Part shown: positions 31,545 through 52,164 of the stretch, one piece after another
How positions within the stretch are numbered: the stretch's first letter is position 1
Layout: each line of letters opens with the position of its first letter
From: Erythrobacter mangrovi
GTDB lineage: Bacteria > Pseudomonadota > Alphaproteobacteria > Sphingomonadales > Sphingomonadaceae
Assembly (NCBI RefSeq): GCF_013260645.1
Contig: NZ_CP053921.1
Span: 2,405,289 to 2,469,288, forward strand
Length of the DNA stretch: 64,000 nt
Reading direction: 5' to 3'
Position numbers and translations under genes: made by a program
Notes under the pieces: generated by a model
The model's database searches: none
Told to the model about the DNA's origin: nothing
The model's input: only the letters and a program-made list of their open reading frames with translations

Positions 31545-32020
31545 GAGAGGCCTCCTTTCTCACTGTTGCCGCGCTCTTTCGAGTTACGGCTCATGGTAAG
31601 CGGTCAAACGGCCTGCCGAGGCAGGCCTCCCGCACGGTTTCCCATGCCTGTCGCTTGGGAAGGCGCGCACATAGCGTCTTCGGCCACGAATGCAAGCGAT
31701 TCGCCGAGGCTACAAAGGGCTGGCCGGTGTTGGAGCGCACCTCCGCCAGCCCTGCTGGATGGAACACATGGAACACTGTCCTAGCAAATGACCTGCCCGC
31801 ACCCCAGCACACCCTTGAGACCCTTGGGTACCAGAAGAATTGCGGGCCTGTGCGTTGCCATGCATCTATCGCCGCATCGCGATATAGGAAAAACACAATG
31901 ATGGAAAACAGCACTTGCGGGATAAGTTTGATTTCCAAACAACAAATGTAATGTTCGATATCAATTCTTAATAAAGTCAAGTCACATCAAATGGAGCTGA
32001 TCGGTTCAAGGAACTTCCAG
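31545..32020. other. Divergent intergenic region between rplK and the pspA-like gene
   Basis: 476 bp between two divergent starts. It should hold the promoter of rplK-rplA on the minus strand and that of the PspA-like gene on the plus strand. The stretch 31750-31990 is visibly richer in A and T than its surroundings (for example TTCTTAATAAAGTCAAG near 31964-31980). Open frames on both strands here (such as 31591-31980 minus) have no ribosome-binding site and no recognisable domain. I cannot place exact promoter boxes. It marks one edge of the insertion in the nusG-rplK region. Confidence 0.5.
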
Positions 32021-32677
32021 ATGATCCATATTGCCGTGCGCGCGCGCGAACTAATCTCGAGCAACGTCGATGCCCTGATTGAAAAGGCCGGCAATCCGGT
32101 GAAAATGTTGCAGCTGCTGCGCACGGAGATCGAGGAAAGCCTGATCACGCTAAATGGCGATCTGGGCAAGGCGCGGCGGCGCCACGAACGGCTGCTGAGT
32201 CAGGCGCAGGCTACCGCGGATGCTGCCGAGGGATGGACCGCCAAGGCCAAATTGGCGATGGACCACAAGCGCGAAGACCTTGCCCGTTCTGCCCTGCTGG
32301 CCCGCGAAGATGGTCGCATGAAGGCAGAGGCTCTGCGCAAGGAGGCCTTGGATCTTGAATCTGAGATCGCCGAACTTGCCGAGGCCTCAGAGAAGTTGGA
32401 GACCAAGCGAGCCGAAGCAATGGCGCGCATTGCGGCCGTACCCACCTCAGACCAAGCTGGAGACACGCGTGCGAGCGGCGACACTAAGGCCGAACGCCAT
32501 CTCGACCGCATCGAACGCATGGAGCGTCGCGTCGATTTCAAGGTCGAGGTTCGCGCCGAACCGACGCCGGCGACTGTCGAGGAGGAAATCGCCGCACTCC
32601 AACGCGATGCCGATCTCGCAGCAGAACTTGCGGCGATGAAGACGACGACTAAGCCAGGCAAGCGCAAAGTCGGCTGA
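32021..32677 (+). CDS. pspA: PspA/IM30 family protein
   Basis: Coiled-coil membrane-stress protein of the PspA/IM30/ESCRT-III family, 218 aa. The N-terminal segment (IHIAVRARELISSNVDALIEKAGNPVKMLQ in outline) matches the amphipathic helix and first helix of PspA, and the rest is a long charged coiled coil (ALRKEALDLESEIAELAE). I choose ATG 32021, with AAGGAAC upstream, over ATG 31991, which has no site and would lengthen the helix beyond the family norm. No pspB, pspC or pspF is nearby, unlike many proteobacteria. It probably binds the inner membrane under stress. First gene of the insert between nusG and rplK. Confidence 0.85.
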   Translation: MIHIAVRARELISSNVDALIEKAGNPVKMLQLLRTEIEESLITLNGDLGKARRRHERLLSQAQATADAAEGWTAKAKLAMDHKREDLARSALLAREDGRMKAEALRKEALDLESEIAELAEASEKLETKRAEAMARIAAVPTSDQAGDTRASGDTKAERHLDRIERMERRVDFKVEVRAEPTPATVEEEIAALQRDADLAAELAAMKTTTKPGKRKVG

Positions 32678-48094: not shown

Positions 48095-48150
48095 CTTGAA
48101 CCCCCGCGACGCTACGGCTAGCGCCGTTGCGAGAGAGACGGAGTGAGACC

Positions 48151-48615
48151 ATGAAAAGCTGGACGAGCATGCTTGCCGCGGCGGCGCTGTGCCTTGGTAC
48201 GCCCGCGGTGGCGCAAGACGATAGCAACGCGCAGATCCTGCATTCGGTCGATGAATTCCTGCGCGGGCTCAACGAGCGGGACCCGGCAGTGATCGCCGCG
48301 GTTTCGACCGAAGAGGGCCTGCTGGTCTCCCACCGGATTCGCGAAGGCCGCGAAGTGATCCGCATGCGCAGCTTTGCAGAAGACCTCGCCACCATCGGTG
48401 AGGGTGAAGAGACCTTCCGCGAAGTTTATTGGGATCCGACCGTGCTGGTCCGCGGCAATATCGCAGTGGTCTGGGCCGAATACAGTTTCGACCTCGACGG
48501 CAAGCGGACCCATTGCGGGATCGATGTCTTCAACCTGATGAAGATCGAGGGCGCGTGGAAGGTGACCGGCATCCAATACACCGTCGAACCCGACAATTGC
48601 CCCAAGGGACGCTGA
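48151..48615 (+). CDS. Exported SnoaL/DUF4440-like (NTF2-fold) protein
   Basis: Small secreted protein of 154 aa with a signal peptide (MKSWTSMLAAAALCLGTPAVA). The mature part follows the NTF2-like pattern: an opening helix (ILHSVDEFLRGLNERDPAVI), central strands with WDPTVLVRGNIAVVWAEYSF and a last strand WKVTGIQYTVEPD, with two cysteines near the end. Such proteins are enzymes or ligand binders with varied roles; none can be assigned here. ATG 48151 has GGAGTGAGACC upstream. It lies between crtB and the carboxylase, 10 bp before the latter, and may be co-transcribed with it. Confidence 0.75.
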   Translation: MKSWTSMLAAAALCLGTPAVAQDDSNAQILHSVDEFLRGLNERDPAVIAAVSTEEGLLVSHRIREGREVIRMRSFAEDLATIGEGEETFREVYWDPTVLVRGNIAVVWAEYSFDLDGKRTHCGIDVFNLMKIEGAWKVTGIQYTVEPDNCPKGR

Positions 48616-48625
48616 CTTACCTACG

Positions 48626-50557
48626 ATGATCAAGAAACTCCTTATCGCCAATCGCGGCGAGATCGCCTGCCGCATCATGCGCACCGCGCGTGAAATGTAT
48701 ATCGACACGGTAGCGGTCTATTCCGACGCCGATGCCAACGCACTGCATGTGCAGTTGGCGGACGAAGCGGTACATATCGGCCCCTCGCCCGCTGCCGAAA
48801 GCTATCTCATCGGCGAGAAGATCATCGCCGCGGCGAAGGCGACCGGTGCTGATGCAATCCATCCGGGCTACGGTTTTCTGTCAGAGAACGCCGGGTTCGC
48901 GCAGGCAGTAATGGATGCAGGGCTGGTGTGGGTCGGCCCCAAGCCCGAGAGCATCGAAGCGATGGGCCTCAAGGACGCGGCGAAAAAACTGATGCGCGCT
49001 GCAGGCGTGCCCGTAACGCCCGGCTACGAAGGCGAGGACCAGTCGGTCGAACGCCTGAAGAAGGAGGCCGAAGCCATCGGCTATCCGGTGCTGATCAAGG
49101 CAGTCGCTGGCGGCGGCGGCAAGGGGATGCGCAAGGTCGACGCGGCAGAGGACTTCGAAGCCGCGCTGGAAAGCTGCCGTCGCGAGGCCAAGGCAAGCTT
49201 CTCCAATGATGAGGTGCTGCTCGAAAAGTGGATAACCTCGCCGCGCCACATCGAAGTCCAGGTGTTCGGCGATAGCCACGGCAATGTCGTCCACCTGTTC
49301 GAACGCGACTGCTCGCTCCAGCGCCGCCACCAGAAGGTGATCGAGGAAGCCCCCGCTCCCGGCATGGACGAGGCGACGCGCGAGGCGATCTGCGCCGCCG
49401 CCGTGCGCGCCGCGAAGGCGGTCGATTACGAGGGGGCGGGCACGATCGAATTCATTGCCGACGCCAGCGAGGGGCTACGCGCCGATCGCATCTTCTTCAT
49501 GGAGATGAACACCCGGCTGCAGGTCGAACACCCGGTGACCGAGGAAATCACCGGTGTGGACCTGGTCGAATGGCAGCTGCGCGTCGCGAGCGGCGAGCCG
49601 ATCCCGCTCAAGCAGGAAGACCTGTCCATCAACGGCTGGGCGATCGAAGCGCGGCTCTATGCGGAGGACCCGGCGAAAGGGTTTTTGCCGAGCACAGGAC
49701 GGTTGGAGTACTTTTTGCTCGCTGATTGGAGCTCCCGAGTCGAATCCGGTGTTGCGCGTGGAGGCGAGATTTCCCCATTCTACGACCCGATGATTGCGAA
49801 GGTGATCGCACACGGGCCTTCACGAGAGCGCGCAATTGAGAAGCTCAGTAAGGCAATCTCGATGGCGCTTATCTATCCCGTCCGGTCGAACTCCGGCTTT
49901 CTCTGGCGATGCCTTGAAGATGCTGATTTTCAATCAGCAAAGCTTGATACGGGTCTTATCGAAAGAAAGTACAAAGAGCTCATTCCACCTGAGGAGCCTA
50001 GCGACGAGACACTGAGATACGCCGTTACTCGCACCGTTCGAGAGAATCTCATTTTCAGCAAGAATAGCAGCTCATTGTCCCCTTCGGATGTTATTGAGCG
50101 AGAGCATATCCTGGGCTTTCGACTAAACCAGGATACCGAAAATTCGGTGACACTTTATGTGGAGGGTGGAAGTAGCCGGAACGTTGAACACTACCCGCCC
50201 CATTGGCCGGAGAACTCCCCTGATGGTGTTGGCGCGACCGTTCCGAGAGCTGGCTACATTCTAGTCGCCGAAAAAGGGCAAACCTACCGGCTCTCGCTTC
50301 GCTTCGAACCAACGGGCCACCACCATGCCCACGATGGCGACATCATCGCCCCCATGCCGGGCAAGGTCATTGCGGTCGATGTGGCCGATGGCGACGCCGT
50401 CACCGCGGGACAGCGGCTGATGGTGCTCGAGGCGATGAAGATGGAACACGCGCTCACCGCGCCCTTCGACGGGACCGTATCCGGACTGGTGGTCAGCGCC
50501 GGCAGCCAGGTCCAGGTCGAGGCCCTGCTCGCAATTGTCGAGCCCAAAGAAGAATAA
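48626..50557 (+). CDS. Acyl-CoA carboxylase alpha subunit (biotin carboxylase + biotin carrier), mosaic
   Basis: ATP-dependent biotin carboxylase joined to a biotin carrier, 643 aa, of the propionyl/methylcrotonyl-CoA carboxylase type. Residues 1-350 are canonical (IANRGEIACRIMRTAREM, HPGYGFLSENAGF, AVAGGGGKGMR, ERDCSLQRRHQKVIEEAP, FMEMNTRLQVEHPVTE). The biotinyl domain has Lys605 in VLEAMKMEH. Between about residues 352 and 555 (49679-50290) base and codon use change sharply: GC drops to about 40-50% per 60-base line (38% at 49921-49980) against 63-67% either side, with many TTT, TTG and AGA-type codons. The frame is intact. The segment retains FYDPMIAKVIAHG and LDTGLIERKYK, so it is homologous but foreign-looking. 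Confidence 0.93.
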   Translation: MIKKLLIANRGEIACRIMRTAREMYIDTVAVYSDADANALHVQLADEAVHIGPSPAAESYLIGEKIIAAAKATGADAIHPGYGFLSENAGFAQAVMDAGLVWVGPKPESIEAMGLKDAAKKLMRAAGVPVTPGYEGEDQSVERLKKEAEAIGYPVLIKAVAGGGGKGMRKVDAAEDFEAALESCRREAKASFSNDEVLLEKWITSPRHIEVQVFGDSHGNVVHLFERDCSLQRRHQKVIEEAPAPGMDEATREAICAAAVRAAKAVDYEGAGTIEFIADASEGLRADRIFFMEMNTRLQVEHPVTEEITGVDLVEWQLRVASGEPIPLKQEDLSINGWAIEARLYAEDPAKGFLPSTGRLEYFLLADWSSRVESGVARGGEISPFYDPMIAKVIAHGPSRERAIEKLSKAISMALIYPVRSNSGFLWRCLEDADFQSAKLDTGLIERKYKELIPPEEPSDETLRYAVTRTVRENLIFSKNSSSLSPSDVIEREHILGFRLNQDTENSVTLYVEGGSSRNVEHYPPHWPENSPDGVGATVPRAGYILVAEKGQTYRLSLRFEPTGHHHAHDGDIIAPMPGKVIAVDVADGDAVTAGQRLMVLEAMKMEHALTAPFDGTVSGLVVSAGSQVQVEALLAIVEPKEE

Positions 50558-50613: not shown

Positions 50614-52164
50614 ATGAGCTGGGCCAAGGAACTCGAAGAGCTGCGCCAGCGCGAGGCGCTGGCCGAACAGATGGGCGGCCCGGACAAGGTCGGGCGACAG
50701 CACTCGCGCGGCAAGATGGATGCGCGCGCGCGACTCGCCGCCCTGGTCGATCCGGGCAGCTTTCGCGAGATCGGCAAGATCGCCGGTAAGGGTTCCTATG
50801 ACGAGGACGGCAACCTTGTTGGCGTGCTCCCCGCCCCCTTCCTGTTTGGCAAGGCCACGGTCAATGGCCGCCCGGTAGTGGCGACTGCCGACGACTTCAC
50901 CATTCGCGGCGGTGCGGCCGACGCCGGGATCAGCCGCAAGATGGTGCAGGCGGAAAAGATGGCGCACGAGATGAAGCTGCCCATCATCCGGATGATCGAT
51001 GGCACCGGCGGCGGCGGATCGGTCAAGACGCTCGAACAGATCGGAGCGACCTATATCCCGGCCGTTCCCGGCTGGTCGGATGTGGTGAAGAACCTCGACA
51101 CGGTGCCGGTGGTGGCGCTGGCGCTTGGCCCCACCGCCGGCCTGGGTGCCGCGCGGGTCGTCGCGAGCCATTATTCGATCATGGTCAAGGGGCTCAGCCA
51201 GATCTTCGCCGCCGGTCCCGCCGTGGTCGACGGCCTGGGCGAAAGCTACAAGGGGCCCGAGGATCACCAGCGCGCCAAGGAAGAACTGGGCGGCAGCGAA
51301 ATCCACACGCGCAACGGCGTGGTCGACGACGAGGTGGCCAGTGAAGCGGAGGCCTTCGCTCGCGCGCGCCATTTCCTCGGCTTCATGCCCGAACACGTCG
51401 GTCAGCTCGCCCGCCGCACCAAACCGCACGATGACCCGAACCGGCGCGAGGAGGCGCTGCTCAGCCTCGTCCCGCGCGAGGAGAAGCAGGTCTATTCGAT
51501 GCGCCGCTGCCTCGACATGGTGTTCGACAAGGGCACGGTGTTCGAAATCGGCCGGCTGTGGGGCCGTACCGCGATCACCGCGCTGGCCCGGCTCGACGGC
51601 TGGCCGGTCGCGGTTCTTGCCAGCGATCCGAGCTATCTCGGCGGCTCATGGGACGCCAAGACCAGCGAGAAGGTCGAGCGCTTCGTCAAGCTGGCCGACC
51701 AGTTCCGCCTGCCGATCGTCCACCTGGTCGACAATCCCGGCTTCATGATCGGTCGCGAAGCAGAGATTGCAGGCACCATCCGCTACGGGGTGCAGGCGAT
51801 GAACGCAGTGTACAAGGCCACGGTGCCGCTCGCCTCGATCGTGCTGCGCCGCGCCTATGGCATTGCAGGCAGCGCGATGAGCAATGCCGAAACCTACCAG
51901 TACCGTTACTGCTGGCCGTCGGGCGACTGGGGCTCGCTCCCCATCGCCGGTGGGCTTGAGGTTGCCTACAAGTCCGACTTGGAAGCCGCCGAGGACCCCG
52001 CGGCTGAACTGGCGGCGATCCGGGCGCGGCTGGACAAGGTGACTTCGCCTTTCCGCAGCGCGGAACGGTTCAACGTCGAGGACATCATCGACCCGCGAGA
52101 TACGCGCCCCTTGCTGTGCGAGTTTGCCCAACTCGCCTGGCGCAAACTCGCCAGCGAGGCCTAG
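50614..52164 (+). CDS. Acyl-CoA carboxylase beta subunit (carboxyltransferase)
   Basis: Carboxyltransferase partner of the preceding gene, 516 aa. It transfers CO2 from carboxybiotin to an acyl-CoA, probably propionyl-CoA or a branched enoyl-CoA. Both crotonase-like halves are present: DFTIRGGAADAGISRKM, MIDGTGGGGSVKT, LGPTAGLGAARVV in the N half; LARLDGWPVAVLASDPSYLG, LVDNPGFMIGREAE and YGIAGSAMSNAETYQYRYCW in the C half. TGAGGAGAGCGG lies before the ATG. It follows the alpha gene by 56 bp. Unlike that gene it is uniformly high-GC. Its stop overlaps the convergent MFS gene. Confidence 0.93.
   Translation: MSWAKELEELRQREALAEQMGGPDKVGRQHSRGKMDARARLAALVDPGSFREIGKIAGKGSYDEDGNLVGVLPAPFLFGKATVNGRPVVATADDFTIRGGAADAGISRKMVQAEKMAHEMKLPIIRMIDGTGGGGSVKTLEQIGATYIPAVPGWSDVVKNLDTVPVVALALGPTAGLGAARVVASHYSIMVKGLSQIFAAGPAVVDGLGESYKGPEDHQRAKEELGGSEIHTRNGVVDDEVASEAEAFARARHFLGFMPEHVGQLARRTKPHDDPNRREEALLSLVPREEKQVYSMRRCLDMVFDKGTVFEIGRLWGRTAITALARLDGWPVAVLASDPSYLGGSWDAKTSEKVERFVKLADQFRLPIVHLVDNPGFMIGREAEIAGTIRYGVQAMNAVYKATVPLASIVLRRAYGIAGSAMSNAETYQYRYCWPSGDWGSLPIAGGLEVAYKSDLEAAEDPAAELAAIRARLDKVTSPFRSAERFNVEDIIDPRDTRPLLCEFAQLAWRKLASEA

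What the first reader, a model, noticed from the sequence alone, without database searches (positions are those of the whole stretch)
49675..50290. In-frame low-GC mosaic segment inside the acyl-CoA carboxylase alpha gene
Seen: between about 49679 and 50290 GC falls to roughly 40-50% per 60-base line (38% at 49921-49980, 43% at 50041-50100) while lines on both sides have 63-67%. Codons change with it (TTT, TTG, AGA, ATT, GAT become common). The frame and the carboxylase homology are kept (FYDPMIAKVIAHG, LDTGLIERKYK), and the biotin Lys605 downstream is normal. The beta-subunit gene has no such patch. The simplest reading is homologous replacement by DNA from a lower-GC relative, or a very diverged allele; it covers the linker between the carboxylase and biotin domains, which contacts the beta subunit.
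Basis: partly seen in the sequence, partly recalled or inferred. Interest (0 to 1): 0.75.

Follow-up and report, generated by a model that had tools for sequence, protein, structure and literature searches.

The report
Swappable middle of a carboxylase subunit
The middle third of a core metabolic enzyme subunit is repeatedly swapped, as one block, for strongly different versions in related bacteria while both ends and its likely partner proteins stay the same, which is unexpected for an enzyme inside the cell and hints that something unknown selects for variety there.

Summary
The patch is real and part of something larger. In the window gene (48626-50557, biotin carboxylase alpha subunit) residues 352-555 have 53% GC (GC3 56%) against 64-66% (GC3 81%) on both sides. 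In 45 congeners the ends are 88-95% (residues 1-350) and 70-89% (561-643) identical to the window, the middle only 38-57% and 15-31%. At 60% identity the middle forms 25 classes in 46 genes of the genus and 82 in 165 proteins with a conserved N part. Sister-like genes either share a class, under purifying selection (dN/dS 0-0.14), or differ to ~30% amino-acid identity, once with surrounding DNA 95-96% identical. The window's flank sister carries another class. The propionyl-CoA carboxylase alpha paralogue and both candidate beta partners have no such patch. Best reading: recurrent block exchange of old alleles by homologous recombination in the conserved ends; probably under selection for diversity (inferred). 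Seven paper searches showed nothing on it.

The parts
48626..50557 (+). alpha subunit gene (biotin carboxylase - BT - biotin carrier), 643 aa, probably the methylcrotonyl-CoA carboxylase (MCC) alpha subunit
   Evidence: ORF; Pfam; best solved relatives are MCC alpha subunits; only three biotin carboxylases found in the genome
48626..49690 (+). conserved 5' block: Biotin_carb_N and ATP-grasp (residues 1 to ~355)
   Evidence: residues 1-350 88-95% identical in congeners
49694..50332 (+). exchanged cassette, residues ~357-569 (C-terminal subdomain of biotin carboxylase plus BT region), low GC
   Evidence: median maximum-likelihood breakpoints against 50 relatives; GC; classes
50333..50554 (+). 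conserved 3' block: biotin carrier domain with Lys605 (AMKMEH)
   Evidence: residues 561-643 70-89% identical in 45 congeners (fragment L053, 68%, dropped); Lys605
50614..52164 (+). adjacent carboxyltransferase beta subunit, 516 aa, no variable patch; absent from many congeners

Best explanation
The segment is one allele of a swappable cassette inside a core, presumably cytosolic, enzyme subunit. The conserved 5' end (catalytic part of biotin carboxylase) and 3' end (biotin carrier) act as homology arms; double crossovers within them replace the ~640-base middle (biotin carboxylase C-subdomain plus BT region) as a block by an old, already diverged allele, in frame. Shown: many classes, sharp edges, host-like flanks, purifying selection inside classes, one recent swap between sister species, no such patch in the paralogue or in either candidate beta. 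Inferred: homologous recombination as the route (no donor or intermediate seen), and diversifying (negative frequency-dependent) selection as the reason, most plausibly because a phage factor, an interbacterial toxin or another antagonist recognises this surface while enzyme function needs only its few invariant residues. I put ~0.93 on block exchange of old alleles and ~0.45 on antagonist recognition as the driver.
For: 46 of the 58 genes of the genus with this orthologue (window included, fragment G038 dropped) were compared: ends 88-95% and 70-89%, middle 38-57%/15-31% identical to the window; 25 classes at 60% identity. In 165 proteins with an N part at least 88% identical, 12,121 of 13,530 pairs have V below 0.5, 729 lie at 0.5-0.65, 50 at 0.65-0.75 and 630 at 0.75 or more: 82 classes, 56 singletons, Chao1 ~178. 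Of the 40 pairs closest in the N part, 18 have V 0.77-0.96 and 22 have V 0.41-0.48 in DNA. Eleven same-class pairs: dN/dS 0-0.14 in V; five different-class pairs: dN 0.65-0.78, dS 1.5-1.9 or not computable. Edges against 50 relatives: left median residue 357, right 569, log-likelihood gain at least 97 each. Recent swap in a second genus: L389/L219, DNA beside the cassette 94.9% and 96.4% identical in two blast pieces, N part 94.4%, cassette 45.3%. Controls: PCC alpha in 19 congeners 88-97% identical in residues 352-450; 516-aa beta 87-92% (25 congeners); MCC-type beta 89-93% (19 congeners); of 103 ORF pairs near the locus alpha ranks 1st, or 2nd when gap columns are ignored, for 'conserved ends, diverged middle'. 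Genus g78 is clock-like, 0 of 21 pairs with V below 0.5, so the domain need not vary this way.
Against: The peaks are not clean: 286 of 1275 DNA pairs's set have V between 0.5 and 0.75, so some classes are related to each other. No donor close to the window's cassette is known, so transfer is inferred from incongruence. The flank-tree count (25 changes, minimum 24) is nearly forced, as 20 classes are single. Little sign of very recent cassette transfer between sampled species (best V 0.937 against N 0.878). One class holds 40 of 165 proteins, more uneven than simple rare-allele advantage predicts. No point-mutation diversifying selection seen inside classes. In 3 of 9 other pairs the left edge fits at residues 328-331, upstream of the usual place. 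No antagonist identified: no relative of the segment in IMG/VR; phage records give only hits below 60%.
Confidence: 0.8

Rival explanations
1. A single recent homologous replacement in the window's lineage by DNA from a lower-GC relative, otherwise unremarkable.
For: Low GC and GC3; flank sister lacks this allele.
Against: 25 classes in 46 genes of the genus; GC dip of 5 points or more in 24 of 46; no donor.
Confidence: 0.04
2. The middle simply evolves fast because it is a poorly constrained linker.
For: The BT region is also the least conserved part of the PCC alpha paralogue (62-81%); 286 of 1275 pairs are intermediate, which is why I put this at 0.05 and not lower.
Against: Same-class pairs show dN/dS 0-0.14 in the middle; among the 40 closest pairs V is either 0.77-0.96 or 0.41-0.48, none between; edges are sharp; the biotin carboxylase C-subdomain is 88-97% conserved in PCC alpha; genus g78 shows what gradual divergence looks like.
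Confidence: 0.05
3. Neutral hotspot: recombination in the two very conserved ends brings in foreign middles that are tolerated because the module is autonomous; no selection for variety.
For: Very conserved arms, autonomous module, core residues kept in 82 class representatives.
Against: PCC alpha has the same architecture and conserved ends but no exchange; genus g78 is clock-like; among 103 neighbouring ORF pairs only one other gene, a cyclophilin, is comparable.
Confidence: 0.25
4. Partner or substrate matching: the cassette sets affinity for one of two beta subunits or another partner, and lineages switch between specialisations.
For: Alpha probably serves two beta subunits; BT contacts beta in known carboxylases (recalled).
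Against: Both betas are constant; the majority class c3 occurs with (9) and without (4) the 516-aa beta among the 13 of 17 c3 genomes whose longer locus was examined; 82 classes are many for two partners.
Confidence: 0.15

Closest known systems
Methylcrotonyl-CoA carboxylase alpha subunit (PDB 3u9s, 8j4z, 8j7d)
   Same: domain order and fold; best profile and fold matches
   Different: in this lineage the C-subdomain plus BT block exists in many exchanged classes; no such report among the listings of the seven paper searches
Mosaic penicillin-binding proteins (penA in Neisseria, PBP2x in streptococci)
   Same: a core enzyme gene altered in frame by block import from relatives (search listing; details recalled)
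   Different: those are driven by a drug (recalled); here 82 classes with no known driver
Type I restriction specificity subunits (HsdS) and flagellin (recalled)
   Same: conserved arms with an exchanged, anciently diverged middle
   Different: those vary a DNA-recognition or surface-exposed domain; this is a metabolic enzyme subunit
Propionyl-CoA carboxylase alpha of the same genomes
   Same: same domain architecture, same genomes; closest solved relative is PCC alpha 3n6r_A
   Different: no exchange: residues 352-450 88-97% identical in 19 congeners

Membership tests
Biotin-dependent acyl-CoA carboxylase alpha subunit | Biotin_carb_N, ATP-grasp, Biotin_carb_C and biotin carrier domains in this order | tested here: met
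   Pfam hits 1-110, 116-327, 341-446, 572-637
Biotin-dependent acyl-CoA carboxylase alpha subunit | biotinylated lysine in AMKM | tested here: met
   Lys605 in AMKMEH, invariant column in 71 aligned proteins; biotinylation itself not testable
Methylcrotonyl-CoA carboxylase alpha | closest solved relatives are MCC alpha by profile and fold | tested here: met
   3u9s best by profile, 8j7d best by Foldseek
Methylcrotonyl-CoA carboxylase alpha | gene beside MCC beta | tested here: not met
   An MCC-type beta (PDB matches 4q0g, 9yx0, 3u9r) lies at G000:C1:867.9k; only three biotin carboxylase genes were found in the genome and none is there. The window alpha stands beside a 516-aa beta closest to PCC beta
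Methylcrotonyl-CoA carboxylase alpha | carboxylates 3-methylcrotonyl-CoA with MCC beta | not testable with these tools
   needs an enzyme assay
Mosaic gene by homologous recombination | internal block incongruent with both flanks | tested here: met
   window against flank sister, breakpoints, L389/L219
Mosaic gene by homologous recombination | identifiable donor | tested here: not met
   best 41-43% over the whole segment
Diversifying-selection locus (balanced classes) | different classes segregating within one species | not tested
   the genome collection holds one genome per species; nearest is the close pair L389/L219

The most novel reading that the evidence does not exclude
The C-subdomain/BT block of this carboxylase is a recognition locus in an arms race or kin-discrimination system of Sphingomonadales: an unknown phage, toxin or other factor docks on it inside the cell, and lineages escape by swapping the whole block for one of probably more than a hundred old classes (82 seen, Chao1 ~178) while the active parts and the beta partners stay fixed.
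Probability: 0.4. Interest if true: 0.85.

Novelty: new variant of a known kind. Interest (0 to 1): 0.7.

Why it matters
Hypervariable, block-exchanged middles are expected in surface proteins and DNA-specificity subunits, not in a core metabolic enzyme whose paralogue and partners are constant. The locus poses a directly testable question: what inside the cell reads this surface? It also warns that single-gene trees or GC-based calls of 'recent transfer' on this gene can mislead, and it offers natural chimeras for mapping how biotin-dependent carboxylases assemble.

Tried and rejected
Single event: rejected. Relaxed linker: unlikely, though intermediates exist. Gene conversion from a paralogue or silent copy in the same genome: besides the gene itself only 38% and 31% matches, in PCC alpha and AccC. 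Co-variation with the adjacent or the remote beta: not seen (lowest 10-residue block of the MCC-type beta 0.57 at 271-280). Link to presence of the 516-aa beta: not seen (the 20 genomes were chosen partly because their locus lacked it). Papers: (listings and abstract starts only; no paper was opened) named nothing on this gene; one search found no paper. A seryl-tRNA synthetase and a cyclophilin that first looked similar in the neighbourhood scan were checked: the first is an insertion, the second a possible smaller case. Range: genera g78 clock-like (0 of 21 pairs V below 0.5), g37 mixed (15 of 36, counted's printed list; its group 'g81_37' holds one g81 genome and nine g37), g2 18 of 21, g75 14 of 15, g74 5 of 6; g43, g67, g69 one pair each. 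The notebook says 47 alleles and 49 relatives; the right numbers are 46 and 50.

Full report
OBSERVATION. The gene 48626-50557 encodes a 643-aa biotin carboxylase alpha subunit with Biotin_carb_N 1-110, ATP-grasp 116-327, Biotin_carb_C 341-446 and Biotin_lipoyl 572-637. Residues 352-555 have GC 52.9% and GC3 55.9% against 64.1%/80.6% before and 65.9%/80.7% after; one of 1268 windows of 612 bases in the 64 kb is as low, and it lies in the segment.

CONGENERS. All 60 genus genomes searched (the window's included) have biotin carboxylase matches; by my reading of the table 58 have this orthologue (G038 as a fragment), while G006 and G052, both incomplete, show only weaker family matches. I compared 46 of these 58, the window included: those for which loci were returned or fetched; duplicates L039-L041 and the fragment L053 were dropped before class counts. 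Identity of the 45 others to the window: residues 1-350 88-95%, 352-450 38-57%, 451-560 15-31%, 561-643 70-89%. Mean pairwise identity per 10 residues falls at residue ~361 and returns at ~571. At 60% identity the middle falls into 25 classes, 20 of them single; one, c3, has 17 members.

BLOCK EXCHANGE, NOT DRIFT. In codon alignments of 51 genes (46 of the genus plus five from near genera), of the 40 pairs closest in the N part 18 have a middle at 0.77-0.96 and 22 at 0.41-0.48. Over all 1275 pairs 892 are below 0.5, 286 at 0.5-0.75 and 97 at 0.75 or more, so some classes are related to each other and the peaks are not clean. Two-changepoint fits of the window against 50 relatives put the edges at median residues 357 and 569 with gains of at least 97 log units; three of nine other pairs fit a left edge at 328-331. 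Eleven same-class pairs have dN/dS 0.00-0.14 in the middle; five different-class pairs have dN 0.65-0.78 and dS 1.5-1.9 or not computable. On a tree of the flanks (46 rows) the classes need 25 changes; 24 is the minimum, and with 20 single classes this count says little. More telling, the window's sister is L011 (G030), SH-aLRT 98, which carries c3; nt identities N 0.866, middle 0.467, biotin carrier 0.905.

WIDER SAMPLE. Of 238 distinct alpha proteins, 165 have an N part at least 88% identical to the window: 82 classes, 56 singletons, Chao1 ~178. The proteins P0198 and P0225 are 99.1% identical in residues 1-350 and 26% in the middle. They are the best matches of G347 and G452, both at 100%, in a second genus; blast of the two loci gives 96.4% upstream and 94.9% downstream, N part 94.4%, middle 45.3%, biotin carrier 89.5% in DNA. 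In that genus 30 loci (of 74 matching genomes) fall into 24 classes and 97.5% of 435 pairs have V below 0.5. In other genera of the family: g78 0 of 21 pairs, g37 15 of 36, g2 18 of 21, g75 14 of 15, g74 5 of 6. Small named samples of Novosphingobium (5), Sphingopyxis (3) and Caulobacter (2) look clock-like, Sphingomonas exchanged (30 of 55 Sphingomonas pairs printed).

CONTROLS. PCC alpha, same architecture, 19 congeners against the window genome's copy: 88-97% in 352-450 and 62-81% in 451-600. Adjacent 516-aa beta: 87-92% in 25 congeners. MCC-type beta: 89-93% in 19 congeners. In 400 kb around the locus compared with 400 kb of the flank sister G030, 103 ORF pairs of 202 matched passed the length and identity limits; alpha ranks first with gaps counted and second, after a cyclophilin, without.

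WHAT THE ENZYME IS. The genome search found three biotin carboxylase genes (this one, PCC alpha, and one that I take for AccC) and three long carboxyltransferases: one 7 kb from PCC alpha, one MCC-type at 867.9k with no alpha found beside it, and the 516-aa one here. So this alpha is probably the MCC alpha, shared with the 516-aa beta where that exists (inference). Of 39 loci, 25 have the 516-aa beta, 11 lack it, one has a remnant (L037) and two cannot be judged; 13 of 20 genomes, selected partly for its absence at the locus, lack a full copy. Profile and fold searches give MCC alpha first (AlphaFold2 mean pLDDT 88.8).

CONSERVED RESIDUES. Across 82 class representatives the middle keeps R371, Y386-K392, R400, N422, T442 and the GFRLN motif with R499; most else varies. 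This fits a module that must still fold, support biotin carboxylation and meet beta, while its remaining surface is free (inference; no coordinates were inspected).

GC. A dip of 5 points or more occurs in 24 of 46, the window's 12.1 being rank 8; c3 averages 3.5, other classes 7.9 (Mann-Whitney p 0.0015, which ignores relatedness). The largest class looks more adapted to the host than the rest. No donor was found.

DRIVER. Shown is exchange; the cause is inferred. The paralogue, both betas and the clock-like genus argue against mere tolerance. Old classes with purifying selection within and many singletons resemble recognition loci; the one large class and the lack of point-mutation selection do not specially favour it. 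I rank antagonist recognition first (~0.45), neutral hotspot 0.25, partner matching 0.15. Seven paper searches (listings and abstract starts only, open-licence library) gave nothing on this gene; that is no proof that nothing is in print.

Noticed in passing
G000:C1:2535530-2536573 (-), loci L319-L348: A cyclophilin-type peptidyl-prolyl isomerase (PF00160) has a variable middle: residues ~131-210 average 0.18-0.46 pairwise identity in 30 loci (window genome included) between better conserved parts; most pairs lie at 0.1-0.3 with a tail up to 1.0.
   Followed up: partly
G000:C1:2370809-2372086 (+), seryl-tRNA synthetase: 14 of 58 genus genomes with a match show it split, mostly at residue ~222, which reads as an extra insert of roughly 30-60 aa; the window's genome lacks it.
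   Followed up: partly
window 50614-52164: The 516-aa carboxyltransferase beta is accessory: absent at the locus in 11 of 39 congeners and a remnant in one (L037), two not judged, while alpha stays.
   Followed up: partly
L034:7193-7921: In G025 an ORF with RTX calcium-binding nonapeptide repeats (PF00353) sits between alpha and beta.
   Followed up: partly
window 48127-48615: The small ORF just upstream of alpha (only a sub-threshold DUF4440 match) is detected beside alpha in 4 of 39 congener loci, three of them at 30-47% identity.
   Followed up: partly
window 31700-32150: The only other stretch of the window with 612-base windows at 55% GC or less lies around a spacer between opposed ORFs (one looks like ribosomal protein L11, recalled) and seems ordinary.
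   Followed up: yes
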